This document shows positions 6,404-52,283 of a stretch of 64,000 nucleotides of DNA, in pieces. Both the position numbers and the translations under genes were made by a program. Below the pieces are notes generated by a model. It did not search any database. It was not told where the DNA came from and worked only from the letters and a program-made list of their open reading frames with translations. Where the stretch lies: contig CP137318.1 of assembly GCA_033182465.1 (NCBI GenBank), positions 3,720,001 to 3,784,000 of the forward strand, written 5' to 3'. This DNA is from Sanghuangporus weigelae (taxonomy: Eukaryota > Basidiomycota > Agaricomycetes > Hymenochaetales > Hymenochaetaceae). The stretch's first letter is position 1. Each line of letters starts with the position of its first letter.

Positions 6404-6405
6404 TA

Positions 6406-17825: not shown

Positions 17826-18907
17826 CAGCTAGTTGCAAAATTGTTGGCAATCACATGATTTCACCACTTTTCTTGCCATGAGAGCCTCAAAACACAGATA
17901 AAATCATATCTCACCCAAATCTCAATGGCTTCACATCATCTAAGTTTCTAAATTCATCTTTTCAAAAGGGCTTTTGCTTAAAAAAAACTATAGAGACAAT
18001 AGAGCAAAAAATGACCCTAAAATGGCGAAAATATCGGTTTTTGCCTCTTCCTTGCATGTGCATTTTTTTCTGTGATCCCTGCTGTCCAGCACCTCCCCAA
18101 AGCTATCCAGAATGATAATATGATTATAAAATGAATTTACAGACTGAGTTTGAGTTGAATTATGTATCAAAATGTGCTGCTTTGAGGCATGCCTGAATTA
18201 CTCAAAACTTATCATTTCCCCCTAGCCTCCCAGGCTCCAGGAAAAATTCTTACAGGCCAGATTCATGCATGTAAATTCATTTTGGATATAATAGACTAGG
18301 TTTGTGTACTAGCTAAGGCCTCAGCATCTACTGGTGAGCTGGGCTGAACAAGTGATTCTGGTTGTATGCATTATTTTAGACAGCATCTTCCCAGCTCACC
18401 AGTGGATGCTGAGGCCTTAGCTAGTACACAAACCTAGTCTATTATATCCAAAATGAATTTACATGCATGAATCTGGCCTGTAAGAATTTTTCCTGGAGCC
18501 TGGGAGGCTAGGGGGAAATGATAAGTTTTGAGTAATTCAGGCATGCCTCAAAGCAGCACATTTTGATACATAATTCAACTCAAACTCAGTCTGTAAATTC
18601 ATTTTATAATCATATTATCATTCTGGATAGCTTTGGGGAGCTGCTGGACAGCAGGGATCACAGAAAAAAATTCACATGCAAAGAAGAGGTAAAAACCGAT
18701 ATTTTTGCCATTTTGGGGTCATGTTTTGCTCCATTTTCTCGATCATTGTTCTTAAGCGAAAGCCCTTTCGAAAAGATGAATTTAGCAACTTAGATGATGT
18801 GAAACCATTGAGATTTGAGTGAGATATGATTTTATCTGTATTTTGAGGCTCTCATGGTGAGAAAAGTGGTAAAATCACGTGATTGCCAACAATTTTGCAA
18901 CTAGCTG
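17826..18907. mobile_element. Palindromic foldback element copy 3 (mosaic arms)
   Basis: 1,082 bp, flanked by TTA and TAA, inserted in Gypsy-1 integrase. Both arms share variants absent from most copies (TATGTATCAAAATG and its complement; CTGCTGTCCAGCA missing one G). Yet the outer parts of the arms belong to two subfamilies: left CTTAAAAAAAACTATAGAG, right (complement) CTTAAGAACAATGATCGAG. Confidence 0.9.
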
Positions 18908-18974
18908 TAATTTTGTAAATGCACCTTTTACTTCTGATCCATTAGAGGTCTTTTGCTATTAAACAGTGACAGAT

Positions 18975-19140
18975 TTTCAAACGGTATCCCATATTCAGCC
19001 GAGGCAAAACCTTGTTTGTAATCAGGCGGCTGCGAGCCAAAGGGTTCTGTCACAGAGGTCACATCGTCCAGTTTGGGAATGCCGATCAACTGGATTAACT
19101 CTTCCTCATTTAAGGAGTAGGAGATGAGAATAATCTGATA
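18975..19140 (-). pseudogene. Coding fragment carried by the DNA element, possibly from a protein kinase
   Basis: The minus strand is open for about 55 codons with SLNEEELIQLIGIPKLDD and SQPPDYKQGFASAEYGIPF. The Gly-x-Pro-x-x-Asp-x-Val-x-x word and a following QPPDY resemble the insert region of fungal SRPK-type Ser/Thr kinases just upstream of the DFG motif. A plausible intron acceptor (TTTATCAG) precedes it, which suggests capture of an intron-bearing host gene. No catalytic motif is present, so it is only a fragment. The kinase assignment is tentative. Confidence 0.35.
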
Positions 19141-19232
19141 AAATTATGCTATTCATATTGAGTATGTGTTCTTATACTATATATTTCTGTGAACCAGAGC
19201 TCGAATCAGAAAAAGGATTTTATTTTGACTTA

Positions 19233-20317
19233 CAGCTAGTTACAAAATTGTTGGCAATCATGTGATTTCACCACTTTTCTCGTCATGAGAGCCTCAAAAC
19301 ACAGATAAAATCATATCTCACTCAAATCTCAACGGTTTCACATCATCTAAGTTGCTAAATTCATCTTTTCGAAAGGGCTTTCATTTTGAAAGAACGATTA
19401 AGAAAATAGAGCAAAACATGACCCAAAAATGGCGAAAATATTGTCTTTTGCCTCTTCCTTGCATGTGCAATTTTTTCTGTGATCCCTGCTGGTCCAGCAC
19501 CTCCCCAAAGCTATCCAGAATGATAATATGATTATAAAATGAATTTACAGACTGAGTTTGAGTTGAATTGTGTACCAGAATGTGCTGCTTTAAGGCATGC
19601 CTGAATCACTCAAAACTCATCATTTCCCCCTAGCCTCTCAGGCTCCAGGAAAAATTCTTACAGGCCAGATTCATGCATGTAAATTCATTTTATATATAAT
19701 AGACTAGGTTTATGTGCTAGCTAGGTCCTCAGCATCCACTGGTGAGCTGGGAAGATGCTGTCTAAAATGATGTATACAACCAGAATCACTTGTTCAGCCC
19801 GGCTCACCAGTGGATGCTGAGGCCTTAGCTAGTACACAAACCTAGTCTATTATATATAAAATGAATTTACATGCATGAATCTGGCCTGTAAGAATTTTTC
19901 CTGGAGCCTTGGAGGCTAGGGGGAAATGATGAGTTTTGAGTGATTCAGGCATGCCTCAAAGCAGCACATTCTGGTACACAATTCAACTCAAACTTAGTCT
20001 GTAAATTTATTTTATAATCATATTATCATTCTGGATAGCTTTGGGGAGGTGCTGGACCAGCAGGGATCACAGACAAAAAATGCACATGCAAGGAAGAGGC
20101 AAAAACCGATATTTTCGCCATTTTGGGGTCATTTTTTGCTCTATTTTCTCGATTAGTTTTTTGAAATGAAAGCCCTTTCGAAAAGATGAATTTAGCAACT
20201 TAGATGATGTGAAACCGTTGAGATTTGGGTGAGATATGATTTTATCTGTGTTTTGAGGCTCTTATGGTGAGAAAAGTGGTGAAATCACGTGATTGCCAAC
20301 AATTTTGCAACTAGCTG
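19233..20317. mobile_element. Palindromic foldback element copy 4 (loop reversed)
   Basis: 1,085 bp flanked by TTA and TAA, inside the DNA transposon. The loop reads GAAGATGCTGTCTAAAATG, the reverse of copies 2 and 3, so the element sits in the opposite orientation or its loop has flipped. Confidence 0.9.
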
Positions 20318-20477
20318 TAAAGGTTGTAGAGACAAGAACTTGCCAATCAGGTCAGAACTGCGTTACGGATCGGCAAGATGTTGCTTGAGTCTTTGTCATG
20401 ATCTCTCACGTTCAAAGGTGGGCCCCAGAATTTTCAAACGGTCGCTATCAGATATCATTTGATAGCAAAAGACCTCT

Positions 20478-20968
20478 ATTGTCAGTTACTACTTGTCCTA
20501 CTGCTCCATAACGACATAATATTTATTCCCAAAATAACTGAGCTAGTGAATCTGCATTTGCTTTCTTGAGTGCTCGACCTTCACTGGCACGTGATAAGTC
20601 ATCTTGAGCTGCTACAATATACTTGAATCCTTTTGCTAGTGGCATATTTATTACATCGACATGAATCTTGACAAATACTGTAGCTGAGGTTGATGGTAGT
20701 AGAGGAATCTCTACTTTTTGTGTACTTCGGATCTGGCATTCATGACATGATCGAACATGATGTTTAACATGTGCTCGCATAAATGGCCAGTAAAATCTCT
20801 GTCTAAGAATCTCATTAGTTGCAAATTCACCTCGATGTCCTAATTCTTCATGTGCTTGAACCATTATTCCATATCTTTCTTCTAGATCAAATATAACTTT
20901 CAATGGCTGATTCCTATTATATTTGAATAATATTTGATCTTTTACATAGAATTGTAAGAATTTCTTTA
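20478..20968 (-). pseudogene. Gypsy-1 integrase zinc-binding and early core fossil
   Basis: Minus-strand frame at 20993-20523 has HEELGHRGEFATNEILRQ, FYWPFMRAHVKHHVRSCHEC and KIHVDVINMPLAKGFKYI, the H-H-C-C finger and the first acidic motif of a Ty3/gypsy integrase. Its upstream end lies at palindromic copy 5 and its downstream end at the DNA transposon. Broken fossil. Confidence 0.75.
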
Positions 20969-22052
20969 CAGCTAGTTGCAAAATTGTTGGCAATCATGTG
21001 ATTTCACCACTTTTCTCACCATGAGAGCCTCAAAACACAGATAAAATCATATCTCACCCAAATCTCAACGGTTTCACATCATCTAAAATGCTAAATTCAT
21101 CTTTTCGAAAGGGCTTTCGTTTAGGAAAAACTATCAAGAAGATAGAGCAAACAATGACCCCAAAATGGCAAAAATCTCGTTTTTTGCCTCTTCCTTGCAT
21201 GTGCATTTTTTTCTGTGATCCCTGCTGGTCCAGCACCTCCCCAAAGCTATCCAGAATGATAATATGATTATAAAATGAATTTACAGACTGAGTTTGAGTT
21301 GAATTGTGTACCAGAATGTGCTGCTTTGAGGCATGCCTAAATCACTCAAAACTCATCATTTCCCCCTAGCCTCCCAGGCTCCAGGAAAAATTCTTACAGG
21401 CCAGATTCATGCATGTAAATTCATTTTGAGTGTAATAGACTAGGTTTGTGCACTAGCTAGGGCCTCAACATCCACTGGTGAGCTGGGCTGAACAAGTGTT
21501 TCTAGTTGTATGCACTATTCTAGACAGCATCTCCCCAGCTCACCAGTGGATGTTGAGGCCCTAGCTAGTGCACAAACCTAGTCTATTACACTCAAAATGA
21601 ATTTACATGCATGAATCTGGCCTGTAAGAATTTTTCCTGGAGCCTGGGAGGCTAGGGGGAAATGATGAGTTTTGAGTGATTCAAGCATGCCTCAAAGCAG
21701 CACATTCTGGTACACAATTCAACTCAAACTCAGTCTGTAAATTTATTTTATAATCATATTATCATTCTGGATAGCTTTGGGGAGGTGCTGGACCAGCAGG
21801 GATTACAGAAAAAAATGCACATGCAAGGAAGAGGCAAAAAACGATATTTTCGCCATTTTGGGGTCCTTTTTTGCTCTATTTTCTCGATCATTTTTCCAAA
21901 ACGAAAGCCCTTTCGAAAAGATGAATTTAGCAACTTAGATGATGTGAAACCGTTGAGATTTAGGTGAGATATTATTTTATCTGTGTTTTGAGGCTCTCAT
22001 GGCGAGAAAAGTAGTGAAATCACGTGATTGCCAACAATTTTGCAACTAGCTG
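20969..22052. mobile_element. Palindromic foldback element copy 5
   Basis: 1,084 bp flanked by TTA and TAA, inserted in Gypsy-1 pol. Private variants CTCAACATCC (left) and GGATGTTGAG (right) are shared by both arms. Confidence 0.9.
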
Positions 22053-22412
22053 TAAGAATCTCTTCCTTACTTGCTCATTGTCAAAATGAGGAACTTCCAT
22101 AGTTAGCAAGAACTTTATGATTTTAAGCAGAAATTCATCTTGCGATGTGGCATCAGTTGTATATACTGGTGCAATTGCTGGAAACCTTATATCTGACTGT
22201 TGCTTTATAATATATAGTGATATATCATCTAGAAAGTCATCTGTAAAGTCTTCATAATCTTCTGGATTGGGTAATCGTCTAGACAATCCATCTGGTCCCT
22301 TGAATTGTGTTGCTGGAACATGTATTAACTTGAAGTCGAATAATAGTATTCCTTGAATCCATCTATTTAAATTGCATTTGGTTGCAAGTCTGGTTCATTT
22401 AGCATGCCTTTA
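22053..22412 (-). pseudogene. Gypsy-1 pol fossil segment (RNase H to linker region)
   Basis: Minus-strand sequence with LSRRLPNPEDYEDFTDDFLDD and FDNEQVRKRFLQL, placed by order between reverse transcriptase and integrase. The phrase LSR..N resembles the end of the RNase H domain. It is bounded on both sides by palindromic insertions. Broken fossil. Confidence 0.55.
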
Positions 22413-23493
22413 CAGCTAGTTGCAAAATTGTTGGCAATTATATGATTTCACCACTTTTCTCGTCATGAGAGCCTCAAAACACAGATAAAATCATATCTCA
22501 CCCAAACCTCAATGGCTTCACATCATCTAAGTTTCTAAATTCATCTTTTCGAAAGGGCTTTTGCTTAAAAAAAACTATAGAGAAAATAGAGCAAAAAATG
22601 ACCCTAAAATGGCAAAAATATTGGTTTTTGCCTCTTCTTTGCATGTGAATTTTTGTTTGTGATCCCTGCTAGTCCAGCACCTCCCCAAAGCTATCCAGAA
22701 TGATAATATGATTATAAAATGAATTTACAGACTGAGTTTGAGTTGAATTGTGTACCAGAATGTGCTGCTTTGAGGCATGCCTGAATTACTCAAAACTTAT
22801 CATTTCCCCCTAGCCTCCCAGGCTCCAGGAAAAATTCTTACAGGCCAGATTCATGCATGTAAATTCATTTTGGATATAATAGACTAGGTTTATGTACTAG
22901 CTAAGGCCTCAGCATCCACTGGTGAGCTGGGCTGAACAAGTGATTCTGGTTGTATGCATTATTTTAGACAGCATCTTCCCAGCTCACCAGTGGATGTTGA
23001 GGCCCTAGCTAGTGCACAAACCTAGTCTATTACACCTAAAATGAATATACATGCATGAATCTGGCCTGTAAGAATTTTTCCTGGAGCCTGGGAGGCTAGG
23101 GGGAAATGATGAGTTTTGAGTGATTCAGGCATGCCTCAAAGCAGCACATTCTGGTACACAATTCAACTCAAACTCAGTCTGTAAATTCATTTTATAATCA
23201 TATTATCATTCTGGATAGCTTTAGGGAGGTGCTGGACTAGCAGGGATCACAAACAAAAATTCACATGCAAAGAAGAGGCAAAACCCGATATTTTCGCTAT
23301 TTTAGGGTCATTTTTGCTCTATTTTCTCTATAGTTTTTTTTAAGCGAAAGCCCTTTCGAAAAGATGAATTTAGCAACTTAGATGATGTGAAACTGTTGAG
23401 ATTTGGGTGAGATATGATTTTATCTGTGTTTTGAGGCTCTTATACGAGAAAGTGGTGAAATCATGTGATTGCCAACAATTTTGCAACTAGCTG
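22413..23493. mobile_element. Palindromic foldback element copy 6
   Basis: 1,081 bp flanked by TTA and TAA in Gypsy-1 pol. Its outer left arm carries the CTTAAAAAAAACTATAGAG subtype seen in copies 3 (left) and 9. Confidence 0.9.
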
Positions 23494-24151
23494 TAATTGC
23501 TCAAAGGCAGACTGTCTTCTATCATCCTATATAAATTCAGTAGAGCATCTTGTCAGCTCTGTTAATGGTTGAGCCATTGCTGAATAATTCTTGATCCAAA
23601 TATGTACTGTTCTACAAAGGCCTAAAAATCCCCAAACATCTTTTACAGTAACTGGGGTTGGCCATTCCTTGATCTTGCTCACCTTACTATCATCTGGTAA
23701 GTGTCCTAAATGTGTACATTTCTGTCCTACTATGACAACTTCAGGTTGTGCAATTTGTGTTTTCTTTGGTGAAAATGTTCCATCTGCATGTCTAACTCTG
23801 TACATAATTCTATGAACATCATTAGCATATTCCCATATGAAACATCTAATTCCTGGATTCTTAGGAATGGTTTCAGGGATTCCATTTTCATCTAGATACA
23901 TAGTTGCTGGTCCTTTTATTGGCAGATCATCAATAAAGATATTTGCAACATTTGGGATTTCATCTTGCAAAATACCATGCATTTCTGAAACTCTGCTGGT
24001 GAATTTGTAAAACCCATTGGCATAGATGTGATACGTAAAAGTCCTAGTGGTGTCCAAAAGGATGTTAAGTTGTGACTTTCTGGAGCTACCTTTCTTGCAT
24101 CAAGTCTCTAAAATAAGTCAAAGACTGTATAACACTGTCGTCCTGCATATG
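23494..24151 (-). pseudogene. Gypsy-1 reverse transcriptase fossil, central and C-terminal part
   Basis: Minus-strand fragment with NVANIFIDDLPIKGP (the region of the catalytic Y/F-x-D-D box), KCTHLGHLPDDSKVSKIKEWP and VWGFLGLCRTVHIWIKNYS, matching the C-terminal half of a Ty3/gypsy reverse transcriptase. It is separated from its N-terminal part by a solo LTR of Gypsy-2. Broken fossil. Confidence 0.75.
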
Positions 24152-25694
24152 TGTTAGGGAGTAGGCCCGGGGTTACACCGGTTTGATCCTTTTGCCTAAG
24201 TAGCGATGTGTTGTGCAGAGGTGATCTTATCTACCCACATCTGGCTGTACCACGTAGTCCCTTACTAGCCTTCCTAGTCGCAGTCCGAGTTATGGATGCT
24301 TTCAGATATGAGGTGATAGTAAAGCAGATTGGGATTTCCAAGAGGTGTGATAGTACAAGGCACACAGTAATAGCTCGCTGTAGGGCAAGCTTTACACCAG
24401 TGTATTAAGAGGATCGAAAGATGAGGAAATGAGGGCCTAATCCTACAGCTATTTATGCTCTCAGATATTCCATTTTCCGTCCTATTTCTTACTCATCCTG
24501 TCTCCACTTTACTCCACTTTACTCCACTTTTCTCCACCACTACATCTGTTCCTTTGTCATCCTGCTGCGCTTTGCTCCACTTTGCTCCAATCTTTGTAAG
24601 ATCGTCTTCACTATGACAGAATTCTTTGGAGTTGCTGACTGAGACAATAGAGGTGGTGCTCCGATATAGAATGCTCCACTGTCAGTACTCCATCACGATG
24701 TCATTGCCGTCATTGAGTGGCATCTTTGCTCTTGGAGCGATGTAGGCTGCTCGGTATGTGATTCTTCGGAATTCATCTCGAGGTCCATTGAATGTAAGCA
24801 TAACTCACACGTCAGTGTTAAGGTGTTGGGTTGGTGTGGAGTATGATCCAAGGCATATCATGAACTGCATAAGCTCTGCTGGCGGGTTCTGCTGTGTTCT
24901 GGTGACTAGCCATGCTTTGCCTTCATATCGTATATCTCAAATGTAATGCCATATCCTTCGTTGTATAAGGAGTTGTAATTGCTTGGTCTCCAGGTTCGCA
25001 TCTCTCGGTAAATAAAGGTTTGTCTGTATTGTAGATGCTAGACATGGTATGGTGTGTGCAACTCCGGTCTATACCATCTAATCATTCTCCAGGTTATCGG
25101 ATTTGCAGTTTGAGGGGTCCGAGTTGTGATCATGAGTTCCTCTCATTTCTTAGGTACTATTAGGTTTGGTGGATTGGAATGCATTGTATCTTGAAGGTGT
25201 CGCTCGGTTTCGATGTGACAGTCACATGTACCAACTGTTGCCATGCATACTATGTAGTATACCTCATAAAGGACCATGTAAACTTGGGCACAGACTTGAC
25301 AGTGCTGAAATGCCAGTGAGGTCTCTATAAACCTTATTAGCCTTTAGCCTTTTAGCGTTTAGGCTTTAGTAGTTGTGCTTCTGGACTTCTAAGAAGTTTG
25401 ATCGCTTCTTTGATTGAGGTCGCTCTGGTTGCTTGGTCGGCAGCATTAGAGTGGTAGTCTGCGGTAATAGGCGGTCGGTGGTGTTAGCTGTTAGCGGGAT
25501 TACGTATCCACTTTGGTGCTTCTAGCGCTCGGGTGGTAACAGGTTACTGTTGCCTAGGCCGCTTGATCGCTTGGGTCTGTGATAGCTGGCTTGGTTACTG
25601 GTCGCGTTTGGAAAGCTGATCGTGTAGATCTGTTGATCATGTAGATCTGTTGATTGTGTCGATCCTGATGCGAGATTTTGAGCGGATCCTTTCA
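24152..25694 (-). repeat. Gypsy-2 solo LTR (copy A) with perfect 5-bp target duplication
   Basis: TGTTAGGGAGTAGGCCCGGG...GATCCTTTCA, matching the LTRs of the 32.6-44.9 kb element in reverse. The flanks ATATG (24147-24151) and ATATG (25695-25699) are an exact 5-bp duplication. No internal Gypsy-2 sequence adjoins, so it is a solo LTR made by LTR-LTR recombination after insertion into Gypsy-1. Confidence 0.88.
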
Positions 25695-26190
25695 ATATGG
25701 CTTTACAAAGTCATCTAAGATTGGAGGTAATCCTGCATCACGAATAGTAATTGCATTCAGTACTTGAAGATCATGCACAATATATAATTTTCCATTTTTC
25801 TTAACTACACAAAACCATCAAGATCTATAAGATGCTTGACTTGGCTCGTATACTCCTGCATCAATCTTTTCTTTGAGTAACTTGATAACATCTTCTTTAA
25901 TTCCTGGTGGAATTGGAATGTTCTTATGCTCCCATGGTACATGAGGGACTATTGGAATAATGTATGGTGAAAAATAGTCTTCTCGAAATGTACCTCTGTG
26001 AATTTCTTCAAATGCTAATGTGTATTCGTTGAGTGAAAAGATATGTGCAAATAACATTTCTTCCTCTGGCCATAAATATCCTTCATCATTAATGTGCAAT
26101 TCTTGTAGACGTTCTTAAGTAAGTCTCTCAGATGGTACAAATTCTGGTGGGCATGTTAATAACTTGGGTAATGATAATAATGGTGTAGAC
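25695..26190 (-). pseudogene. Gypsy-1 reverse transcriptase fossil, N-terminal part
   Basis: Minus-strand fragment with IPIVPHVPWEHKNIPIPPGI and VIKLLKEKIDAGVYEPS, the start of a Ty3/gypsy reverse transcriptase in which the template is gripped by the fingers. Gypsy-1 sequence ends near 26190, where a GC-richer unrelated block begins, and resumes only at 44902 with gag. Confidence 0.7.
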
Positions 26191-26690
26191 TATCAGACCC
26201 TCTTAAGCAGCAGCGAAGGCGGCTGTGTTCGACCACAGGGAGGCATCGGCGATGTCAAAGATCGGAGAGGTAAGAAAGGGTGCAACTTGCGGCTAGGCCT
26301 CCTAGACAGCTCGATGCCGCAGCGAACGATTTGACCCGGAAGCACTGCTGCTGATCAGAATGGACATTCAGTCATGGAGGAGAGCTCAATTGTAAAGACT
26401 GAAACATGGTGTAGTGGGTGGTGTGTGTCTCTGAAGGCGCTACCAATGTCCGTCCTACTAAGGGTGCTGAATGTATGAAGAAACCTCCAAAAATGAGATG
26501 CCGACGCTATCAGACTCTAAATCCCCACTACCCAGCAGGTGCCAGGGACCGTCAGAGACGTGATGGATAGGTCTAGGGATGCCGAAGTATGAAAGGGATA
26601 AGCTAATAGGGCCGCCGCTCAAATGGGGAGATCACAGGAGGCTGCTGACGTGGTGGAAACTCAGACACAGGGTTGGCAGGACTGTATGAG
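26191..26690. other. GC-richer unclassified repeat block, left part
   Basis: Begins TATCAGACCCTCTTAAGCAG and contains a second, similar phrase TATCAGACTCTAAATCC near 26507. Base composition is clearly less AT-rich than the neighbours. No coding motif. It continues at 28205 on the other side of a solo LTR. Confidence 0.35.
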
Positions 26691-28204
26691 TGAAAGGATC
26701 CGCTCAAAATCTCACATCAGAATCAACACGATCAACAGATCCACACAATTGGCTTTCCATATGCGACCAGTAACCAAGTCAGCTATCACAGACCCAAGCA
26801 ATCAAAGTGGCCCAGGCAACAGTAACCCATTACCACCCGAGTGCTAGAAGCACCAAAGCGAATATGTAATCCCGCTGACAGCTAACACTGCCGACCGCCT
26901 ATTGCCGCGGACTACCACTCTAACACCGCCGACCAAACAACTGGAGTGACCTCAATCAAAAGAAGCGATCAAACTTCTTAGAAGTCCAGAAGCACAACTA
27001 CTAAAGCCTAAATGCTAAAAGGCTAAAGGCTAATAAGGTTTATAGAGACCTCACTGGCATTTCAGCACTGTCAAGTCTGTGCCCAAGTTTACATGGTCCT
27101 TTATGAGGTATACTACATAGTATGCATGTCAACCGCTGGCACTTGTGACTGTCACATCAAAACCAAAAGACACCTTCAAGACACAATGCATTCCAATCCA
27201 CCAAACCCAGTAGTACCCAAGAAATGAGAGGAACTCACGATCACAACTTGGACCCCTCAAACTGCGAACCCGATAACTTGGAGAATGATTGGATGGTATA
27301 GATTGGAGTTGCACACACCATGTCCAGCATCTACGATACAGGCAAACCTCTATTTACCGAGAGATGTGAACCTGGAGACCAAGCAGTTACAACTCCTTAT
27401 ACAACGAAGGATATGGCATTACATTCGAGACATACGATATGAAGACAAAGCATGGCTAGTCACCAGAACCCAGCAGAACCCGCCAGCAGAGCTTATGCAG
27501 TTCATGATATGCCTTGGACCATACTCTACACCAACCCGACACCTTAACACCGACGTGTGAGTTATGCTTACACTCAATGGACCTCGAGATGAATTCCGAA
27601 GAATCACATACCGAGCAGCCTACATCGCTCCAAGAGCAAAGATGCCACTCAATGACGGCAATGACATTGTTATGGAGTACTGACAGTGGAGCATTCCATA
27701 TCGGAACACCACCTCTATTGTCTCAGTCAGCAACTCCACAGAATTCTGTCATAGTGGAGACGACCTTACAAAGATTGGAGCAAAGTGGAGCGAAGCGCAG
27801 CAGGATGACAAAGGAACAGATGTAATGGTGGAGAAAGGTGGACTAAAGTGGAGACAAGATAAATAAGAAATAGGACGGAAAATGGAGTATCTGGGAGCAT
27901 AAATAGCTGTAGGATTAGACCCTCATTTCCCCATCTTTCAATCCTCTTAATACACTGGTGTAAAGCTTGCCCTACAGCAAGCTATTACTGTGTGCCTTGT
28001 ACTATCACACCTCTTGGAAATCCCAATCTGCTTTACTATCACCTCGTATCTGAAAGCATCCATAACTCGGACCGTAACTAGGAAGGCTAGTAAGGGACTG
28101 CATGGTACAGCCAGACGTGAGTAGATAAGACCACCTCTGCACAACACATCGCTGCTTAGGCAAAAAGGATTGAACTGGTGTAACCCCGGGCCTACTCTCT
28201 AACA
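26691..28204 (+). repeat. Gypsy-2 solo LTR (copy B)
   Basis: TGAAAGGATCCGCTC...ACTCTCTAACA, about 1.5 kb, close to the LTRs of the full Gypsy-2 copy. The flanks ATGAG and ATAAG differ at one base, consistent with an aged 5-bp duplication. No adjacent Gypsy-2 internal sequence. It splits the GC-richer block. Confidence 0.85.
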
Positions 28205-30036: not shown

Positions 30037-32594
30037 CCGCAATAAAGAGTAAGACTAAAGCTTGGGAGCGTACAAAGTCGTTACAACCAGTTCTGTGGTG
30101 TTCCGACTGGTTTCGCCCGGTTCTGACTGGTTTTGCTGGAGCGAGTGGACTTAGCAAGAACACCATAGTCTAAATGGCACGTGCACCATTCCATGATCGG
30201 CCATCATATCAGACGTGGCGGAAGAATCACGCAATGATCCTACACGCGTCAATCACAAGTCTCCGGATCCCGGATCTGTACTCCTGACAAAGAGATTTGA
30301 CCCTGCAGCGTCGCCCACAGTCCCTCTCCCATTTAAAATGTCGCGGATTTGCCCTGTAAGGCTAGCCGAGGTCTTTTCAAGTCCTTTCCCCAAGTTCTGA
30401 CTTGTTCCGCTCAAAGACACCCGGTTCCGAAGGCTTTGCTTATGATCTCACCTTTCTATATGCGTTCCTTTTATTTCTTTATGCTCTCGTTCCGACCATG
30501 CTTAGTATTGTTTCTTTCTGCTTTATGTGTCCCTTAACCATTCATATGTGCCCCTCTCCTTTGTAGATAAGTGATATGTGTTTCCCTTTTCTTATGGCTT
30601 ATGTTTTCTGACCGATGGGAGGCACAGTCTTGGACATTTAGCATAAATATAGCACGACTCTTGTAGTGGGGGGACAGCTTAGTTGGAGCTGAGCAGTTCT
30701 CAGATCGTCTCAAGTCCCCCAGCATCGAGTTCTACTTGTTCGTAGTGGACTCTCTCGTCTCTAAAGCCTAATATACAATATTTCGTGTTCTGTACAGTCG
30801 ATCGGTGATCTCTCTTTGCAGCAGAGCCGTTCGTACATTCGTACAGTTCACCGTGTTCGTGTAAAGGACTCCTCTTGTCTCTATCATCCGTATCAAAACC
30901 TCCTCGCTGAAACTCCTGTGGGTGTTCTGATACCGGACAGGGAATATAAAGTTCGAGGGGCTGCCCTAGAATACCTTTGAGTAGTCAGCAGAGAGTTACA
31001 CCTAGACCAAAGGCAAGTGGAAACGAAGGGATAAGGGAATATACGAGGGAAGGGTTATAAGAGGGCTGAGGAGCATGTGAGAGACACTCGAGGAATGATT
31101 CCGAGGATGGGCTTCTCCCGAGATTGATGGTGGCGGTGCGAAGGCTAAATCGACTCTCCGGCTCAACTGCAAGCTCTGGACTAAAGCTGACTAACACAAG
31201 GCATGAGAACTAATCTATCTAATGCTAGGCTAGTCAAACCACCAACTCGAACGTGACTAATCAACTGCGCTAACACACTGGGAAGCGACGGTAGCCGATC
31301 TCACTCGTAGTCTAAAGTGTCGGAACGCGGCGTAACAATTCAAAACACGATACGATAGATGGAGGGACTGTACAGTGATAGAAAGGGATGATATGGTGTC
31401 CTTTTCTGACGACAGTGGAGAGGGGAAGGTCTTGCGAGACTGAAAGCATGTGGCACGCCAGGTAACAGGGTTACGAGCGAAAACAGCAAAACAGATTGGA
31501 ACACGCGAGGAGGTTTTGATACAGATGATAGAGACAAGAGGAGTCCTTTACACAAACACGGCAAACTGTACAAACGTACAAACAGCTCTGCTGTGAAGAG
31601 AGATCACCAATCGACTGTGCAGAACACGAAATATTGTATATTAGACTTTTAGAGACGAGAGAGTCCACTACGAACAAGTAGAACTCGAAACTGGGGGGCT
31701 TGAGACGATCTGAGAACTGCTCAGCTCCCACTAAGCTGTCCCCCTCACTACGAGAGTTGTGCTATATTTATACCAAACGTCCAATGCTGAGCCTCCCATC
31801 GGTCAGAGAACATAAGTCATAAGAAAAAGAGGAACACATATCACTATCTACAAAGGAGAGGGGTGCATATGAATGGTTAAGGGACACATAAAGCAGAAAG
31901 AAACAATACTAAGCATGGTCGGAATGAGAGCATAAAGAAATAAAAGGAATGCATATAGAAAGGTGAGATCATAAGCGAAGCCTTCGGAACCGGGTGTCTT
32001 TGAGTGGAACAAGTCGGAACTTGGGGAAAGGACTTGGAAAGACCTCGGCTAGCCTTACAGGGCAAATCCGCGACATTTTAAATGGGAGAGGGACTGTGGG
32101 CGACGCTGCAGGGTCAAATCTCTTTGTCAGGAGTACAGATCCGGGATCCGGAGACTTGTGATTGACGCGTGTAGGATCATCGCGTGATTCTTCCGCCACG
32201 TCTGATATGATAGCCGATCATGGAATGGTGCACATGCCATTTAGACTATGGCGTTCTTGCTAAGTCCACTCACTCCAGCGAAACCAGTCGGAACCGGTCA
32301 AAACCAGTCAGAACACCACGGAACTGGTCGTAATGACTTCGTACGCTCCCAAGCTTCAGTCTTACTCTTTATCGCGTGTTCCGATCTGTTTCGCTGGTTT
32401 CGCTCGTAACCCCATTACCTAGCGTGCCACGTGCTTTCGGTCTCGCAAGACCTTCCCTTCTCCACTGTCGTTGGAAAAGGACACCATATCATCCCTTTCT
32501 ATCACCGTACAGTCCCTCCGTCCCTCATATCACGTTTTGGTCACCCAGTTATCGCCCTCTGTCCATCGTATCGTGTTTCAAATTGTTATGCCAC
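30037..32594. repeat. Inverted LTR-like blocks of a further retroelement
   Basis: 30037-30915 and 31488-32372 are close inverted copies of each other (for example AATAAAGAGTAAGACT at 30044 mirrors AGTCTTACTCTTTAT at 32357). Separately, 31320-31487 and 32373-32590 are inverted copies, meeting the second block at GGAACACGCG and CGCGTGTTCC. Read in one sense each block has a TATA-like box (TATAAATATAGCAC) followed by a promoter-proximal stretch with GGGGGACAGCTTAG, as in an LTR. The middle (30916-31319) has no motif. A Gypsy-2 LTR truncates the right end. Confidence 0.5.
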
Positions 32595-38034: not shown

Positions 38035-38196
38035 AACCAAGTCTCACAGCCACTGAACAAAGCGAGTTCAGTATCTCAGCAGTATTCTCAGCAAAAGGCA
38101 GCTGCAGAAGGACTACTAGGAACACAGAAACGAGATTGGCGAAAACTCCTACCAAAGGAAATAGAAGACTACATAGACGTCTTTGATCCTGATAGA

Positions 38197-40572: not shown

Positions 40573-40680
40573 CAAGTACAGCAAGAAGCCTATAATTCAA
40601 TTAGGCAAGCGAACAAGGCAATGAAGCTTTATGCAGACCTGCATTGAGGCAAACTGCCGGAGTACAAGCCAGGAGATGAA

Positions 40681-41112: not shown

Positions 41113-41317
41113 ATCGCCGCACAAAAACGAATGAGGCAATAGTTGCATCACATGCACTCCACCCGATGGAGCCGCTTATGGATCCACAATAGAGACGATG
41201 AGTAAGATCCCCAACGACCTTACCAAGCAATGACATCAATGTGGCACACCAAAGCGAGGGCAGAGATAGAAGAATTAGGCAAGACATCGCCGACATACCA
41301 ACAAGATGGTATAAAAC

Positions 41318-44901: not shown

Positions 44902-45153
44902 TTAGTCATATCATAGTCTGGGTCTTTCATAAGTAGACGTGTTTCTAAGACCAAATGTGTGTGTGCATCAATCCCATTCCAATAATATGTTGCTTCTTCA
45001 TCTTCCGTAATCTTGTTATTGACCCGTAACCATCCTCCAATGATAATAAAGTCTCTTGTGTACTTGGCAAATTGATTCCAGTTCTTCATCTTCTTATCAC
45101 GATGCTCATGCATAAACTTTTTAAGATCATACTTTGTATACCGCTTCTTATTA
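44902..45153 (-). pseudogene. Gypsy-1 gag fossil, downstream part
   Basis: Minus-strand frame with YTKYDLKKFMHEHRDKK, WNQFAKYTRDFIIIGGWL and DEEATYYWNGI, a Retrotrans_gag-like capsid segment. It lies between palindromic copy 7 and the Gypsy-2 LTR. Confidence 0.6.
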
Positions 45154-46236
45154 CAGCTAGTTGCAAAATTGTTGGCAATCATGTGATTTCACCACTTTTC
45201 TCGCCATAAGAGCCTCAAAACACAGATAAAATCATATCTCACCCAAATCTCAATGGTTTCACATCATCTAAGTTGATAAATTCATCTTTTCGAAAGGGCT
45301 TTCGCTTAAGAACAATGATCGAGAAAATAGAGCAAAAAATGACTCCAAAATGGCAAAAATATCGGTTTTTGCCTCTTCTTTGCATGTGAATTTTTTTCTG
45401 TGATCCCTGCTGTCCAGCACCTCCCCAAAGCTATCCAGAATGATAATATGATTATAAAATGAATTTACAGACTGAGTTTGAGTTGAATTGTGTACCAGAA
45501 TGTGCTGCTTTGAGGCATGCCTGAATCACTCAAAACTCATCATTTCCTCCTAGCTTCCCAGGCTCCAGGAAAAATTCTTACAGGCCAGATTCATGCATGT
45601 AAATTCATTTTAGGTGTAATAGACTAGGTTTGTGCACTAGCTAGAGCCTCAGCATCCACTGGTGAGCTGGGAAGATGCTGCCTAGAATAGTGCATACAAC
45701 TAGAAATACTTGTTCAGCCCAGCTCACCAGTGGATGCTGAGGCTCTAGCTAGTACACAAACCTAGTCTATTACACCTAAAATGAATTTACATGCATGAAT
45801 CTGGCCTGTAAGAATTTTTCCTGGAGCCTGGGAAGCTAGGAGGAAATGATGAGTTTTAAGTGATTCAGGCATGCCTCAAAGCAGCACATTCTGGTACACA
45901 ATTCAACTCAAACTCAGTCTGTAAATTCATTTTATAATCATATTATCATTCTGGATAGCTTTGGGGAGGTGCTGGACCAGCAGGGATCACAGAAAAAAAT
46001 TCACATGCAAAGAAGAGGCAAAAACCGATATTTTTGCCATTTTGGGGTCATGTTTTGCTCCATTTTCTCGATCATTGTTCTTAAGTGAAAGCCCTTTCGA
46101 AAAGATGAATTTAGCAACTTAGATGATGTGAAACCATTGAGATTTAGGTGAGATATGATTTTATCTATGTTTTGAGACTCTCATGGTGAGAAAAGTGGTG
46201 AAATCACGTGATTGTCAACAATTTTGCAACTAGCTG
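45154..46236. mobile_element. Palindromic foldback element copy 7 (loop reversed)
   Basis: 1,083 bp flanked by TTA and TAA, in Gypsy-1 gag. Both arms share private changes: CTAGAGCCTC with GAGGCTCTAG, and CTCCTAGCTTCCC with GGGAAGCTAGGAG. Loop reversed relative to copy 2. Confidence 0.92.
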
Positions 46237-46540
46237 TAAGTCCAGCATTGAACAAACGTAGCATTGCTGCCTTCATTTCCTTCCAATTAGGTGTCTTGAA
46301 AGAAGGTAATCCTTCAATAACATTCTTGACATTTCTAGTGCAATATCTCGTTATAGTCTTGCACTTGTCTGCATCTTCGCTAACATTGTACTTTTTACAA
46401 AGTTGTTCACAGTGGTCTAGAAACTCCTCTACTTTAGAGAAATGGCCTTCAAATATCTTGAGGGCATTCTTTGATGTGGAGAAAGGCATATCTAAAACCG
46501 AAAGGCTGATTGCCTGAGAATCATTGTTTTTCTCAAGCAC
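46237..46540 (-). pseudogene. Gypsy-1 gag fossil, N-terminal part
   Basis: Minus-strand frame with MPFSTSKNALKIFEGHFSK, VEEFLDHCEQLCKKYNV and WKEMKAAMLRLFNA, the N-terminal part of a Ty3/gypsy capsid. It is the frame nearest the 5' LTR on the coding strand. Confidence 0.65.
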
Positions 46541-46685
46541 TTTTCTTTCTACTGTTATATTTAAATTCCTTATTCAAATCTGTTTCTTGGATACTGATCC
46601 CGATATACTGTTCTGTAGTACTTCCTGTTTAAGTAACTTGGATATTACTTAAGCCTACTTTCTCTCACCATGGGCTCCAATTCTA

Positions 46686-49071
46686 TGTCGAGTAGTTTTT
46701 GTAATTGAAGATATTTATGCAAATAGACTCAGTCAATATACTACTTCTGAGTCAACCGGATTGTTTATGCAATCAGGTAGTTTTCCCAGTTGTTCGTTAT
46801 AAAGCAAGGGTGATCTAAGTAATAAGATGGCTATCTGATAAATGTATTAGTTTCTGAAAGATAGTACTAAGCTTACAGCTAGTTGCAAAATTGTTGGCAA
46901 TCACGTGATTTCACCACTTTTCTCGCCATAAGAGCCTCAAAACACAGATAAAATCATATCTCACCCAAATCTCAACGGTTTCACATCATCCAAGTTGCTA
47001 AATTCATCTTTTCAAAAGGGCTTGCATTTAGGAAAAACGATCGAGAAAATAGAGCAAAAAAGGACCCCAAAATAGCGAAAATATTGTTTTTTGCCTCTTC
47101 TTTGTATGTGCATTTTTTTCTGTGATCCCTGCTGGTCCAGCACCTCCCCAAAGCTATCCAGAATGATAATATGATTATAAAATGAATTTACAGACTGAGT
47201 TTGAGTTGAATTGTGTACCAGAATGTGCTGCTTTGAGGCATGCCTGAATCACTCAAAACTCATCATTTCCCCCTAGCCTCCCAGGCTCCAGGAAAAATTC
47301 TTACAGGCCAGATTCATGCATGTAAATTCATTTTAGATATAATAGACTAGGTTTATGTGCTAGCTAGGTCCTCAGTATCCACTAGTGAGCTGGAAAGATG
47401 CTGTCTAAAATGATGCATACAACCAGAATCTCATGTTCTGGCCAGCTCACTAGTGGATGCTGAGGACCTAGCTAGCACATAAACCTAGTCTATTATATCT
47501 AAAATGAATTTACATACATGATTCTGGCCTGTAAGAATTTTTCCTGGAGCCTGGGAGGCTAGGGGGAAATGATGAGTTTTGAGTGATTTAGGCATGCCTC
47601 AAAGCAGCACATTCTGGTACACAATTCAACTCAAACTCAGTCTGTAAATTCATTTTATAATCATATTATCATTCTGGATAGCTTGGGGGAGGTGCTGGAC
47701 TAGCAGGGATCACAGAAAAAAATGCACATACAAGGAAGAGGCAAAAAACAATATTTTCGCTATTTTGGGGTCCTTTTTTGCTCTATTTTCTCGATCGTTT
47801 TTCCTAAATGCAAGCCCTTTCGAAAAGATGAATTTAGAAACTTGGATGATGTGAAACCGTTGAGATTTGGGTGAGATATGATTTTATCTGTGTTTTGAGG
47901 CTCTCATGGCGAGAAAAGTGATAAAATCACGTGATTGCCAACAATTTTGCAACTAGCTGTAAGACTCTGTGTCCTAGCTCTGACTTGTTATACACACAAA
48001 GGTGCTTCTGAGAGTGAGCGATGTAGCTGATACGATAGTACTTGACTAAAATTCTATTGTCTCTACAGGGCCCAAAGGCTGCCCTTTTATAATTTACAGG
48101 CTGTGTCTATGCTACAAATGAGTCATAAATAGTTTCTACACTAGACTGTATAAGATATCAATTTATCTCCTTATGTGTTAGGTCTTGTTACTTATATGTA
48201 CTAATAACGAATAAATATAACTCCTTCCACTACTAGTCATCTCAGTTCAGAATCTTCTAGAATGTCCAAAGATAGAGTGTTCTAGAATGTTCTGGTCTAT
48301 TCTAGTCCATTTCTAGCTAATGCACACTAATTATAACTCATATCTCCTTATAGTTAGTTCTATTACTACTCTCAATCTGACTGTATCTATGGAGTAGACT
48401 AACTTAATCGGTGCTTGTTATTTGCTATGGGTATTGACTCAGTCTTCTAAACCTCTCCATCCTTGGCATGCACCCTGAAACCTTTACTTTATCCGATGTG
48501 TTCTGCTTCTTTTGATTGGGCACCTTTTCTATTCATTCATTGTACACCTTGGCATGTCTAGCAGTTTGATAAGAACCCATTAGTAAGCGGAATTATACAA
48601 TATGCTCTTTATCATGCATCTTTATCCTATGAAAAATATTCTGAATCTACGTCTTCTCTACAAGTGTCTTTTGATATTTTGCTACATGTCTCGTTCTCGT
48701 AAAACTCATGAGCCCATAAGGTAGTTATTCCTTTTTAACTTCATAGATAATCACTTATAGGGTCATATATAGAATCTGGGTCAATCGAAGTACCACTGTG
48801 GAAGTTGAATAGGTTGCATGGTTCTTTGATGGTTATCGTATTATTCCTAGAATTGTTCGGTAAGCCCATACATTCTTTACTGTATAAGCAGGTTTCATTC
48901 ATACATCATTAGATATATCAAATTTGACAATTTTGAAAAGGAATGGTGTTATGATAAGTGTTAGAGCATTTTGCAGTATTCATAAACTGTCCTGTGTTGT
49001 CACAAATTATGTCTGTTAGCAATGAGATGTGACCGCTATTAGTTATTATATAATACATTTATGGCCTGACA
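46686..49071 (-). repeat. Gypsy-1 5' LTR, split by palindromic copy 8
   Basis: TGTCGAGTAG...GCCTGACA, matching 14478-16058. Without copy 8 it is about 1.3 kb. Differences from its partner are mostly transitions (for example GATAGTACTAAG against GATAATACTAAG). The right edge abuts a reversed Gypsy-2 internal sequence. Confidence 0.85.
46876..47959. mobile_element. Palindromic foldback element copy 8 in the Gypsy-1 5' LTR
   Basis: 1,084 bp. The left flank reads AAGCTTA and the right flank TAAGACTCTG; the partner LTR has AAGCTTAAGACTG near 14657, so an empty TTAA target is visible. The private change GCTTGCATTTAGG in the left outer arm has its complement CCTAAATGCAAGC in the right arm, so here homogeneity extends to the outer arm. 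Confidence 0.92.
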
Positions 49072-49548
49072 GTGTAAATCTCGTTCAATTGCTATTATCG
49101 TTCGTTCGTTGACCGTTACTTCTGCCGTTGGCATTTCCTGATTGGTTCATGAACTTCGTTTCTTGTCTAACACTTCAGGTGTTTCGTTCCTTGGTGCTGT
49201 TAACCAAGTGGTTCCTTTCTCGTCGAATGTAGCAATAGTGGAAGGGACTGCTGCTACTTTTGTGGTTATTGTTTGCGTGCTCCCAACTGCAGGGCTACCA
49301 GATGCCTTTGCTATTAGGTACACTTTGTTATTATAGGGGTTATGATAGTAGATGTGTGATTTAAGTGAATCGGGTTTATCGTTCTCCAGGGTGTGCACTT
49401 GTCCTAGGGATACGATGGGGTACTAGTCTCAAAACTAGTGATGTCGATAGGGACTTGAGATCGACGGTCCTTGCCTCGATAAAACACTAGCCAAGAACTT
49501 TGCCCGTGAGAGGTGGTGGTAAAACTAGCGAGTGATCTTTCGATCCAA
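49072..49548 (-). pseudogene. Gypsy-2 remnant, leader region
   Basis: Reverse-strand match to 34102-34580 of the full copy, including the leader ORF (49398-49144: TLENDKPDSLKSHIYYHNP) and the ATGA junction into the next ORF. It is cut at 49072 by the Gypsy-1 LTR within the sequence corresponding to about 34574. No further Gypsy-2 coding remains. Confidence 0.8.
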
Positions 49549-51054
49549 TGTTAGGGAGTAGGCCCGGGGTTACACCAGTTTAATCCTTTTATCTAAGCAG
49601 TGGTGTATTGTGCAGAGGTGATCTTATCTACCCACGTCTGGCTGTACTACACGGTCCCTTACTAGCCTTCCTAGTCGTGGTCCAAGTTATGGATGCTTTC
49701 AGATACGAGGTAGTAGTAAAGCAGATTGGGATTTCCAAGAGGCGTGATAGTACAAAGTACACAGTAATAGCCTGCTGTAGAGCAAGCTTTACATCAGTGT
49801 GTTAAGAGGATTGAAAGATGGGGAAATGAGAGCCTAATCCTACAACTATTTATGCTCCCAGATATTTCATTTTCTGTCCTATTTCTTACTCATCCTGTCT
49901 CCACTTTACTCCACTTTTCTCCACCTTTCTCCACCATTACCTCTGTTCCTTTGTCATCCTGCTGCGCTTCGCTCCACTTTGCTCCAATCTTTGTAAGGTC
50001 GTCTCCACTATGACAGAATTCTGTGGAGTTGTTGACTGAGACAATAGAGGTGGTGTTCTGATATGGAATGCTCCATTGTCAGTACTCCATAATGATGTCA
50101 TTGCTGTCATTGAGTGGCATCTTTGCTCTTGGAGCAATGTAGGCTGCTCGATATGTGACTCTTTGGAATTTATCTCAAGGTCCAGTAAGTGTAAGCATAA
50201 CTCGCACGTTGGTGTTAAGGTGTCGGGTTGGTATAGCATATGGTCCAAGGCATATCATGAACTGCATAAGTTCTGCTGGGTTCTGGTAACTAGCTATGCT
50301 TTGCCTTCATATCGTATGTCTCGAATGTAATGCCATATCCTTTGTTATATAAGAAGTTGTAACTGCTTGGTCTTCAGGTTTGCATCTCTCGGTAAATAGA
50401 GGTTTGCTTGTATCATAGATGCTGGATATGGTGTGTGCAACTCTGGTCTATACCATCTAATCATCCTCCAAGTTATCGGGTTCGCAGTTCGAGAGGTTCA
50501 AGTTGTGATCATGAGTTCCTCTCGTTTCTTGGGTACTACTGGATTTGGTAGATTGGAATGCATTGTATCTTGAAGGTGTCGCTCGGTTTCAATATGATAG
50601 TCACGAGTGCCAGCAGTTAACATGCATACTATGTAGTATACCTCATAAAGGACCATGTAAACTTGGGCACAGACTTGACAGTGCTGAAATGCCAGTAAGG
50701 TCTCCATAAACCTTATTAGCCTTTAGCCTTTTAGCGTTTAGACTTTAGTAGTTATGCTTCTGGACTTCTATGAAGTTTGATCGCTTCTTTGATCGAGGTT
50801 ACTCTGGTTGTTCAGTCGGCGGCATTAGAGTGGTAGTCCGCGGTAATAGGCGGTCGGTGGTGTTAGCTGTTAGCGGGGTTACGTATCTGCTTTAGTGCTC
50901 CTAGCACTCAGGTGGTAACAGGTTACTGTTGCCTAGGCCGCTCACGTTTGGGCCCGTGTTAGCTGGCTTAGTTACTGGTCATATTTGAAAGGCTGATTAT
51001 GTAGATCTGCTGATTGCATCAATCCTGATGCAAGATTTTGAGTGGATCCTTTCA
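49549..51054 (-). repeat. Gypsy-2 LTR (copy E), 5' LTR of the remnant
   Basis: TGTTAGGGAGTAGGCC...GATCCTTTCA, minus strand, contiguous with Gypsy-2 leader sequence on its left. It is visibly more diverged than the others by eye, mostly by transitions. Confidence 0.85.
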
Positions 51055-51199
51055 CTGGATGAGCAAAAAAAAAATAGTGAATATCTCAGTTAATACAGCA
51101 CATAAAAATCTGATATAACCATGTAAAAAACCTGCTCAAAAATGCGCTCCAGTACATATAAAAATGTCTGGGTTTTGTTGAGTATGTACTTCGCTACTA
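51055..51199. other. Short spacer between Gypsy-2 LTR and palindromic copy 9
   Basis: About 145 bp, AT-rich, with a run of ten A near 51066. Nothing recognised. Confidence 0.5.
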
Positions 51200-52283
51200 C
51201 AGCTAGTTGCAAAATTGTTGGCAATCACATGATTTCATCACTTTTCTCGCCATGAGAGCCTCAAAACACAGATAAAATCATATCTCACCCAAATCTCAAT
51301 GGTTTCACATCATCTAAGTTTCTAAATTCATCTTTTCAAAGGGGCTTTTGCTTAAAAAAAACTATAGAGAAAATAGAGCAAAAAATGACCCTAAAATGAC
51401 GAAAATATTGGTTTTTGCCTCTTCCTTGCATGTGCAATTTTTTCTGTGATCCCTGCTGGTCCAGCACCTCCCCAAAGCTATCCAGAATGATAATATGATT
51501 ATAAAATGAATTTACAGACTGAGTTTGAGTTGAATTGTGTACCAGAATGTGCTGCTTTGAGGCATGCCTGAATCACTCAAAACTCATCATTTTCCCCTAG
51601 CCTTCCAGGCTGCAGGAAAAATTCTTACAGGCCAGATTCATGCATGTAAATTCATTTTGGATATAATAGACTAGGTTTGTGTACTAGCTAAGGCCTCAGC
51701 ATCCACTGGTGAGCTGGGCTGAACAAGTGATTCCGGTTGTATGCATCATTTTAGACAGCATCTTCCCAGCTCACCAGTGGATGCTGAGGCCTTAGCTAGT
51801 ACACAATCCTAGTCTATTATATCCAAAATGAATTTACATGCATGAATCTGGCCTGTAAGAATTTTTCCTGCAGCCTGGAAGGCTAGGGGAAAATGATGAG
51901 TTTTGAGTGATTCAGGCATGCCTCAAAGCAGCACATTCTGGTACACAATTCAACTCAAACTCAGTCTGTAAATTCATTTTATAATCATATTATCATTCTG
52001 GATAGCTTTGGGGAGGTGCTGGACCAGCAGGGATCACAAACAAAAATTCACATGCAAAGAAAAGGCAAAAACCGATATTTTCGCCATTTTAGGGTCATTT
52101 TTTGCTTTATTTTCTCTATAGTTTTTTTTAAGCGAAAGCCCTTTCGAAAAGATGAATTTAGAAACTTAGATGATGTGAAACCATTGAGATTTGGGTGAGA
52201 TATGATTTTATCTGTGTTTTAAGGCTCTCATGGCGAGAAAAGTGGTAAAATCACGTGATTGCCAACAATTTTGCAACTAGCTG
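51200..52283. mobile_element. Palindromic foldback element copy 9
   Basis: 1,084 bp flanked by TA on the left and TAA on the right. Both arms share private changes: CTTCCAGGCTGCAGG with CCTGCAGCCTGGAAG, and CATTTTCCCCTAG with CTAGGGGAAAATG. Confidence 0.92.

What the first reader, a model, noticed from the sequence alone, without database searches (positions are those of the whole stretch)
17826..52283. Arm-to-arm homogenisation centred on the hairpin loop
Changes found in only one copy occur in both of its arms: copy 3 (TATGTATCAAAATG and its complement), copy 5 (CTCAACATCC), copy 7 (CTAGAGCCTC and CTCCTAGCTTCCC), copy 8 (GCTTGCATTT), copy 9 (GGCTGCAGG and CATTTTCCCC). By contrast the outer 150-230 bp of the two arms often differ in the same copies (clear in copies 1B, 3 and 4). 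So correction between arms is strong near the loop and weak near the ends. This fits hairpin-mediated copying: intra-strand annealing with repair, or a replication step through a closed hairpin. It means one arm acts as the template for the other.
Basis: seen in the sequence. Interest (0 to 1): 0.82.

Follow-up and report, generated by a model that had tools for sequence, protein, structure and literature searches.

The report
Palindromic transposons copying arm to arm
A family of about 1.1-kb mirror-image mobile elements in a fungal genome keeps its two halves alike by copying sequence from one half to the other, a known kind of DNA correction, and the copying is not centred on the hairpin loop as first thought.

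Summary
The window holds nine complete copies (plus one truncated) of a ~1,088-bp palindromic element: arm 522, loop 45, arm 521. I aligned both arms of 119 complete copies from the same 33.9-Mb genome. Sharing of copy-specific changes between arms is real. In the window 13 of 80 one-copy variants are in both arms (re-paired mean 1.6). Genome-wide, 24 of 203 variants private to one element are in both arms. Five of 15 single-element deletions have identical breakpoints in both arms, three of them 28-58 nt from the tip. In the P subfamily the arms of one element differ at 2.1 sites, against 9.4 between elements. The claimed loop-centred gradient does not hold family-wide: the outer 230 nt carry 61.7% of family diversity and 61.9% of arm-arm mismatches. 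A trend is nominal in the window, weak in the T class, and absent in all 119 copies and in P. Homogenisation is best away from both arm ends. Best reading: recurrent gene conversion inside single elements, in internal tracts, in a Tc1/mariner-type non-autonomous element. Timing relative to insertion is unresolved. New member of a known kind.

The parts
4387..5317 (.). copy 1A: palindromic element whose B arm is cut short (arm positions 156-525 only) where copy 1B begins; a further tip fragment (arm 1-131) lies at 4270-4405
   Evidence: blastn of arm
5318..6405 (.). copy 1B: complete element (arms 5318-5837 and 5881-6405)
12599..13686 (.). copy 2: complete element; 40 arm-arm mismatches of 520
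17824..18909 (.). copy 3: complete element; outer 230 nt 22 mismatches, inner 290 nt 3; private TATGTATCAAAATG in both arms
19231..20319 (.). copy 4: complete element
20967..22054 (.). copy 5: complete element with the CTAGAATAGTG loop type; CTCAACATCC in both arms (also in one arm of two other elements)
22411..23495 (.). copy 6: complete element
45152..46238 (.). copy 7: complete element; CTAGAGCCTC and CTCCTAGCTTCCC in both arms (each also in both arms of one other element)
46874..47961 (.). copy 8: complete element; private GCTTGCATTT (T>G at arm position 151) in both arms
51198..52285 (.). copy 9: complete element; GGCTGCAGG (both arms of 6 elements in all) and CATTTTCCCC (both arms of 2 in all)

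Best explanation
The copies are non-autonomous, almost fully palindromic TA-inserting transposons of the Tc1/mariner type. Their two inverted arms undergo recurrent non-reciprocal exchange (gene conversion) within single elements. Tracts start and end inside the arms and can exceed 150-200 nt, so the middle of the arm is homogenised best and the tip and loop-flanking ends less well; occasional arm-arm exchange lets alleles outside the loop-flanking ~30 nt lose their link to one side of the loop. SHOWN: identical private substitutions and deletions in both arms of single elements; arms of one element more alike than arms of different elements; no loop-centred gradient family-wide; strong loop-side polarity only at two sites near the loop. 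INFERRED: that the agent is homology-dependent gene conversion; that much of it happens in resident copies between transpositions; that divergence of the arms, by mutation or by recombination with other copies, later weakens it, as in the T class.
For: Private variants in both arms: 24 of 203 across 119 elements and 49 of 87 in the 21-element P set; L133 has 13 both-arm variants and one one-arm variant. Deletions of 2 bp or more confined to one element: 5 of 15 are in both arms with the same breakpoints (L110 28-37, L019 45-55, L101 57-58, L081 412-416, L039 464-465). P set: 2.14 arm-arm differences within elements, 9.40 between; partner arm nearest or tied for 33 of 42 arms. Identical A/B runs of 200 nt or more: 47 of 119, 5.0 after re-pairing; 19 of the 47 touch neither end. 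In T-class elements with at least 8 mismatches, runs of 150 nt or more: 23 of 73, against 8.1 when mismatches are placed by family diversity. Hump-shaped profile in P: 5 of 20, 40 of 57, 4 of 10 from tip to loop. Loop-side polarity at p < 0.001 only at sites 494 and 511.
Against: No pair of copies descended from one insertion was found that would show a change made after insertion; the one candidate (L027_304 / L105_2407, same target in ~90% identical flanks) may be two independent insertions. Over the whole family the partner arm is nearest or tied for only 84 of 238 arms. Many P-set both-arm alleles also occur in other elements, so some may be imports or recurrent changes; counting only alleles absent from all other elements gives 6 both-arm and 9 one-arm in the 23 P elements. 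Most T-class private variants are in one arm (142 of 160). None of the few insertions of 2 nt or more is in both arms in identical form. Of the 47 long identity runs, 22 touch the loop end and 15 the tip, a lean toward the loop that lower inner diversity may explain. The hump shape rests on few variants and wide intervals. No strain comparison, reads or genetics were available.
Confidence: 0.62

Rival explanations
1. Hairpin or snap-back copying anchored at the loop: a strand folds back at the loop and one arm is rewritten from the other outward from the loop.
For: Window copies share 11 of 42 inner but 2 of 38 outer one-copy variants; T-class within/between ratio 0.625 inner vs 0.726 outer; T-class private variants in both arms 5 of 74 at 1-208 and 13 of 86 at 209-520 (counts; p = 0.13); nine of 119 elements have no A/B mismatch; 22 of 47 long identity runs reach the loop end, 15 the tip.
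Against: No gradient in all 119 or in P (31 of 55 outer, 18 of 32 inner, p = 1.0). In the T class the loop-adjacent 40 nt are about as poorly homogenised as the outer arm, and sites 494 and 511 keep side-specific alleles. Five elements show the reverse pattern.
Confidence: 0.12
2. Homogenisation is coupled to transposition or excision: after cut-and-paste excision the gap is refilled with fold-back or arm-switched synthesis, so each cycle tends to reset the arms.
For: P copies are the most perfect (0-8 mismatches). The three variants carried by 3, 4 and 5 P elements are in both arms of every carrier, and variants carried by two P elements are in both arms in 23 of 32 cases, so some homogenisation preceded amplification. 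Gap repair with template switching is named as a source of defective Galileo copies (PMC4168063, one passage).
Against: L015 and L016, with unrelated flanks, are identical over both arms and the loop yet both keep seven A/B mismatches at tip positions 7-24, so transposition transmitted unequal tips unchanged. In the T class the arms of most elements differ widely (mean 20.6 mismatches).
Confidence: 0.15
3. Short-range replication template switching between arms (quasipalindrome correction).
For: Known to homogenise inverted-repeat arms and invert spacers (PMC8604942, abstract and passages; PMC8794818, abstract); predicts two-arm private changes and loop inversions.
Against: The yeast examples seen in PMC8604942 have arms of 8-16 bp, whereas identity runs here often exceed 150-200 nt. 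A transversion excess among both-arm variants in P is not significant (p = 0.10).
Confidence: 0.08
4. Assembly or polishing artefact: one arm's sequence was written into the other.
For: The arms are long near-identical inverted repeats, where read placement is ambiguous; no reads could be inspected.
Against: Two-arm private changes and deletions also lie 19-58 nt from the element's end, next to unique flank where reads are anchored; 2,081 A/B mismatches survive in 119 elements.
Confidence: 0.03

Closest known systems
Galileo and other long-TIR / foldback-like DNA transposons (Drosophila)
   Same: Long TIRs; TIRs of one copy 98-100% identical; chimeric copies; exchange and conversion among copies proposed (PMC3573991, passages)
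   Different: P superfamily with internally repetitive TIRs and 7-bp target duplications; here TA ends, 522-nt arms without tandem repeats, a 45-nt loop and a probable Tc1/mariner partner
TIR-TIR recombination in ISWpi1 (Wolbachia)
   Same: Recombination between the inverted ends of a single element makes the TIRs identical and inverts the interior (PMC3004938, passages and Discussion section)
   Different: 23-bp TIRs in a bacterial IS with a transposase gene inside; shown with strain comparisons, which are lacking here
Sex-chromosome palindromes with arm-to-arm gene conversion
   Same: Inverted arms kept alike by conversion (PMC8981503, abstract start in search listing only)
   Different: Large palindromes; here ~0.5-kb arms in more than a hundred dispersed mobile copies, which gives replicate histories
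Template-switch homogenisation of short inverted repeats
   Same: Produces arm homogenisation and spacer inversion (PMC8604942, abstract and passages)
   Different: Short arms and short tracts
MITEs with extended TIRs / Tc1-mariner-derived non-autonomous elements (class recalled, not from a call)
   Same: TA ends, no long ORF inside, many copies, tips of one subfamily shared with larger tip pairs that hold a DDE_3 match
   Different: Nearly the whole element is TIR

Membership tests
Tc1/mariner-derived non-autonomous element (MITE with extended TIRs) | TA target duplication | tested here: met
   110 of 119 extracted copies begin and end with TA; flank -1 is T in 94 of 110 and +1 is A in 96 of 110. 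Some of the other nine were trimmed by the aligner (L047 and L055 begin with TA when re-extracted). No empty site was examined.
Tc1/mariner-derived non-autonomous element (MITE with extended TIRs) | No transposase gene inside | tested here: met
   No ORF of 150 aa or more lies wholly inside a copy in the window listing; the one that overlaps a copy (20523-20993) matches a retroelement integrase zinc-binding domain. Only the window copies were examined for ORFs.
Tc1/mariner-derived non-autonomous element (MITE with extended TIRs) | Tips shared with an element that encodes a DDE transposase | tested here: inconclusive
   The first 27 nt of the P tip end 10 complete inverted tip pairs 8-49 kb apart; 8 of 10 enclose a DDE_3 (PF13358) match. 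These stretches could not be fetched; no partner was sought by sequence for the T tip of the window copies.
Foldback (FB/Galileo-type) transposon | Long inverted repeats built of internal tandem repeats | tested here: not met
   Long inverted repeats are present, but the tandem-repeat search lists no array inside the nine complete window copies.
Palindrome with arm-to-arm gene conversion | Arms of one palindrome more alike than arms of different copies, with private two-arm changes | tested here: met
Palindrome with arm-to-arm gene conversion | Conversion events observed at one locus between strains or generations | not testable with these tools
   Only one genome; the tool states it has no relatives here.
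Loop-centred hairpin copying | Homogenisation strongest next to the loop and falling toward the tips | tested here: not met
   a weak outer-inner trend in the T class and a nominal one in the window.

The most novel reading that the evidence does not exclude
The P subfamily is actively 'self-templating': copying between its arms, during excision repair or in resident copies, resets each lineage to a near-perfect palindrome faster than point mutation erodes it, so both ends stay recognisable by a transposase encoded elsewhere, and subfamilies die (T class) once the arms diverge too far to recombine.
Probability: 0.15. Interest if true: 0.7.

Novelty: new member of a known kind. Interest (0 to 1): 0.42.

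Why it matters
More than a hundred related palindromes at many separate sites are a natural replicate experiment on how short inverted repeats exchange information. They allow tract length, end effects and loop inversion to be measured for ~0.5-kb arms, between the ~10-nt scale of template switching and the larger scale of sex-chromosome palindromes. They also show why a gradient seen in one window needs a control for diversity along the arm.

Tried and rejected
Loop-centred gradient: tested by within/between ratios, by private variants, by per-element outer/inner tests and by identity runs; rejected family-wide, with the weak T-class trend and the nominal window effect stated as found.

Pyrimidine bias of the 24 both-arm private variants (21 of 24 vs 101 of 179 one-arm, p = 0.003, post hoc): not pursued as a mechanism; in the table, 15 of 32 P both-arm variants start from C or T (counted by eye), so it does not repeat. 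A transversion excess among both-arm variants in P was not significant (p = 0.10).

Duplicate insertions as an in-place test: comparison of 250-nt flanks gave homology abutting the element on both sides only for L027_304/L105_2407, not decidable, and for the L048 array, which is an unequal-crossover product. Crowding as cause of arm divergence in the T class: Spearman -0.20, p = 0.059, and near vs far p = 0.18, not significant.

KDZ transposase as partner of the giant P-tip pairs: three genome-wide matches, none inside a complete tip pair; DDE_3 fits instead. Rfam (gathering threshold) and tRNA searches of the window: nothing. Literature searches listed no paper whose title or abstract start describes this family; they cover only the held open-access library, and I read none of the papers in full.

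Rows dropped: 119 complete two-arm elements entered the main analysis and 62 partial hits did not; one search used 111 elements; one search used 21 of 24 P-tip pairs (the others were 62, 804 and 882 bp long). Pattern searches list at most about 100 places, so some copies were not fetched. No phylogenetic tree was built.
Full report
WHAT IS THERE. The window (G000:C1:3720001-3784000 of a 33.9-Mb, 13-contig genome) contains nine complete copies and one truncated copy of a nearly perfect palindrome. Copies are ~1,088 bp: arm A 522 nt (74 of 119 elements), loop 45 nt (115 of 119), arm B 521 nt (81 of 119). 110 of 119 extracted copies start and end with TA, with T before (94 of 110) and A after (96 of 110). 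The tip pattern occurs 133 times forward and 142 times reverse in the genome at up to 3 mismatches.

DATA SET. Tip, loop and arm searches gave 151 clustered places, 141 of them outside the window; these were fetched, and three more stretches, chosen from the P-tip search. 119 elements had both arms essentially complete; 62 other hits were partial and left out. Arms were oriented by the loop and aligned. Arm position 1 is the tip, 520 the loop side. A and B pools are barely differentiated: between-element divergence A-A, B-B and A-B is similar in every 40-nt bin up to 520, while the junction column 521 differs. Large arm clusters mix A and B (27 A and 26 B in the largest), though some small ones lean to one side, such as 6 A and 1 B. 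No tree was built.

ARM-TO-ARM SHARING IS REAL. (a) In the window, 13 of 80 one-copy variants are in both arms; random re-pairing gives 1.6 on average, maximum 11 in 200 shuffles. (b) In 119 elements, 24 of 203 variants private to one element are in both arms. (c) Deletions of 2 bp or more confined to one element: 5 of 15 are present in both arms with the same breakpoints (L110 10 bp at 28-37; L019 11 bp at 45-55; L101 2 bp at 57-58; L081 5 bp at 412-416; L039 2 bp at 464-465), among 111 elements in that alignment. Independent identical deletions are not a plausible source. Of the few insertions of 2 nt or more none is in both arms in identical form. (d) Identical A/B runs of 200 nt or more occur in 47 of 119 elements, against 5.0 after re-pairing. 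(e) Compared with the five nearest other elements, within-element divergence is lower in each quarter of the arm (ratios 0.68-0.84). On the other side, over the whole family the partner arm is nearest or tied for only 84 of 238 arms.

THE P SUBFAMILY SHOWS IT BEST. The 19 elements with the tip TACAGCCGTTTGCAAAAGTAATGAGAATCAC on both arms, and four more with one tip unscored, fall in one tight cluster. In 21 elements with both tips intact, the two arms differ at 2.14 sites on average while arms of different elements differ at 9.40; the partner arm is nearest or tied for 33 of 42 arms. Of 87 variants carried by one P element, 49 are in both arms; L133 has 13 in both arms and one in one arm. A palindromic founder alone does not explain this, because after insertion each arm would mutate separately and the two distances would be equal. 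A caution: many of these alleles also occur in other elements; counting only alleles absent elsewhere gives 6 both-arm and 9 one-arm in the 23 P elements (my count from its table).

THE GRADIENT IS NOT A PROPERTY OF THE FAMILY. The outer 230 nt simply vary more: they hold 61.7% of family heterozygosity, and 1,288 of 2,081 arm-arm mismatches (61.9%). Within/between ratios are 0.567 outer and 0.563 inner for all 119 (difference 0.004, CI -0.057 to 0.079). Private variants in both arms: 9 of 104 outer, 15 of 99 inner (p = 0.19); in P 31 of 55 and 18 of 32 (p = 1.0). Among 91 elements with at least 5 mismatches, 4 have a significant outer excess and 5 an inner excess at the 230-nt cut (5 and 4 at 180, 5 and 7 at 260).

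THE SHAPE IS A HUMP, NOT A LOOP-CENTRED PEAK. In P the shared fraction is 5 of 20 in the outer 104 nt, 40 of 57 at 105-416 and 4 of 10 at 417-521 (intervals 0-0.43, 0.54-0.84, 0-0.8). In the T class the best-homogenised zone is 313-480 and the last 40 nt before the loop are back at 0.70. Alleles at 494 and 511 keep to one side of the loop (20:2 and 25:1) while most tested sites further out do not; weaker lean is seen at 485 (14:3), 496 (23:9), 165 (21:5) and 154 (20:8). Poor homogenisation at both ends is what conversion tracts with both ends inside the homology would give; copying started at the loop would do the opposite. The numbers are small and the intervals wide.

TIMING. The three variants carried by 3, 4 and 5 P elements are in both arms of every carrier, and those carried by two are in both arms in 23 of 32 cases, so some homogenisation precedes amplification. 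L015 and L016 have unrelated flanks, are identical in both arms and loop, and both keep seven A/B mismatches at 7-24: transposition passed unequal tips on. No duplicated insertion allowed a clean test of conversion in place. The L048 array shows how unequal arms can arise: the middle copy joins the A arm of one neighbour to the B arm of the other.

WHAT MOVES THEM. The first 27 nt of the P tip also end 10 complete inverted tip pairs 8-49 kb apart; 8 of the 10 contain a DDE_3 match (the three KDZ matches lie elsewhere). So a large Tc1/mariner-type element is the likely partner of P; this is an inference, since those stretches could not be fetched. A partner of the T-tip copies in the window was not identified.

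COMPARISON WITH WHAT IS KNOWN. Conversion between inverted arms is known from IS TIRs (PMC3004938, passages and Discussion), suggested for Galileo (PMC3573991, passages) and Tetris (PMC4079207, one passage), known for sex-chromosome palindromes (PMC8981503, listing only) and for short inverted repeats by template switching (PMC8604942, abstract and passages; PMC8794818, abstract). The family here is a new member of the known class of palindromic non-autonomous transposons, and the process works like arm-to-arm gene conversion; direct observation of events was not possible.

Noticed in passing
G000:C1:3701591-3715196, C7:2568053-2580044 and eight other tip pairs: Pairs of inverted tips 8-49 kb apart share the first 27 nt of the P palindromes; 8 of 10 contain a DDE_3 transposase match. 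Probable giant Tc1/mariner-type elements.
   Followed up: partly
L134:44-105 (G000:C1:3823103-3823164): A 62-bp perfect palindrome made only of two P tips joined at CACGTG, flanked by T and A: probably an internal deletion between the self-complementary AATCACGTGATT copies near each tip.
   Followed up: no
L048 (G000:C4:2612187-2616281): Tandem array of three palindromes with ~110-bp spacers; the middle copy is a hybrid of its neighbours' arms, an unequal crossover product.
   Followed up: yes
L015 and L016 (G000:C1:4374985-4376072 and ~4427475-4428562): Two copies with different flanks, identical in arms and loop, both with a P tip on one arm and a T tip on the other, lying just outside the two ends of a 49-kb P-tip pair.
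   Followed up: partly
arm positions 241-440 of all copies: The inner arm is less variable among the 119 copies (between-element A-B divergence 0.02-0.04) than positions 121-240 (0.09-0.13); reason unknown.
   Followed up: no
L027_304 and L105_2407: Two elements in the same target position of ~90% identical flanks but with the loop in opposite orientation: either two insertions at one site or an old shared insertion with loop inversion.
   Followed up: partly
window 24190-28165 and 30038-32376: Further large inverted repeats (93-95% complementary arms of 338-545 nt) that the arm search did not hit.
   Followed up: no
window 54138-55153 and 62559-62934: A frame with a sub-threshold HTH_23 match followed by below-cut-off DDE_3 matches, and further DDE_3 matches at C1:3782559-3782934: probable Tc1-type transposase remnants.
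   Followed up: no
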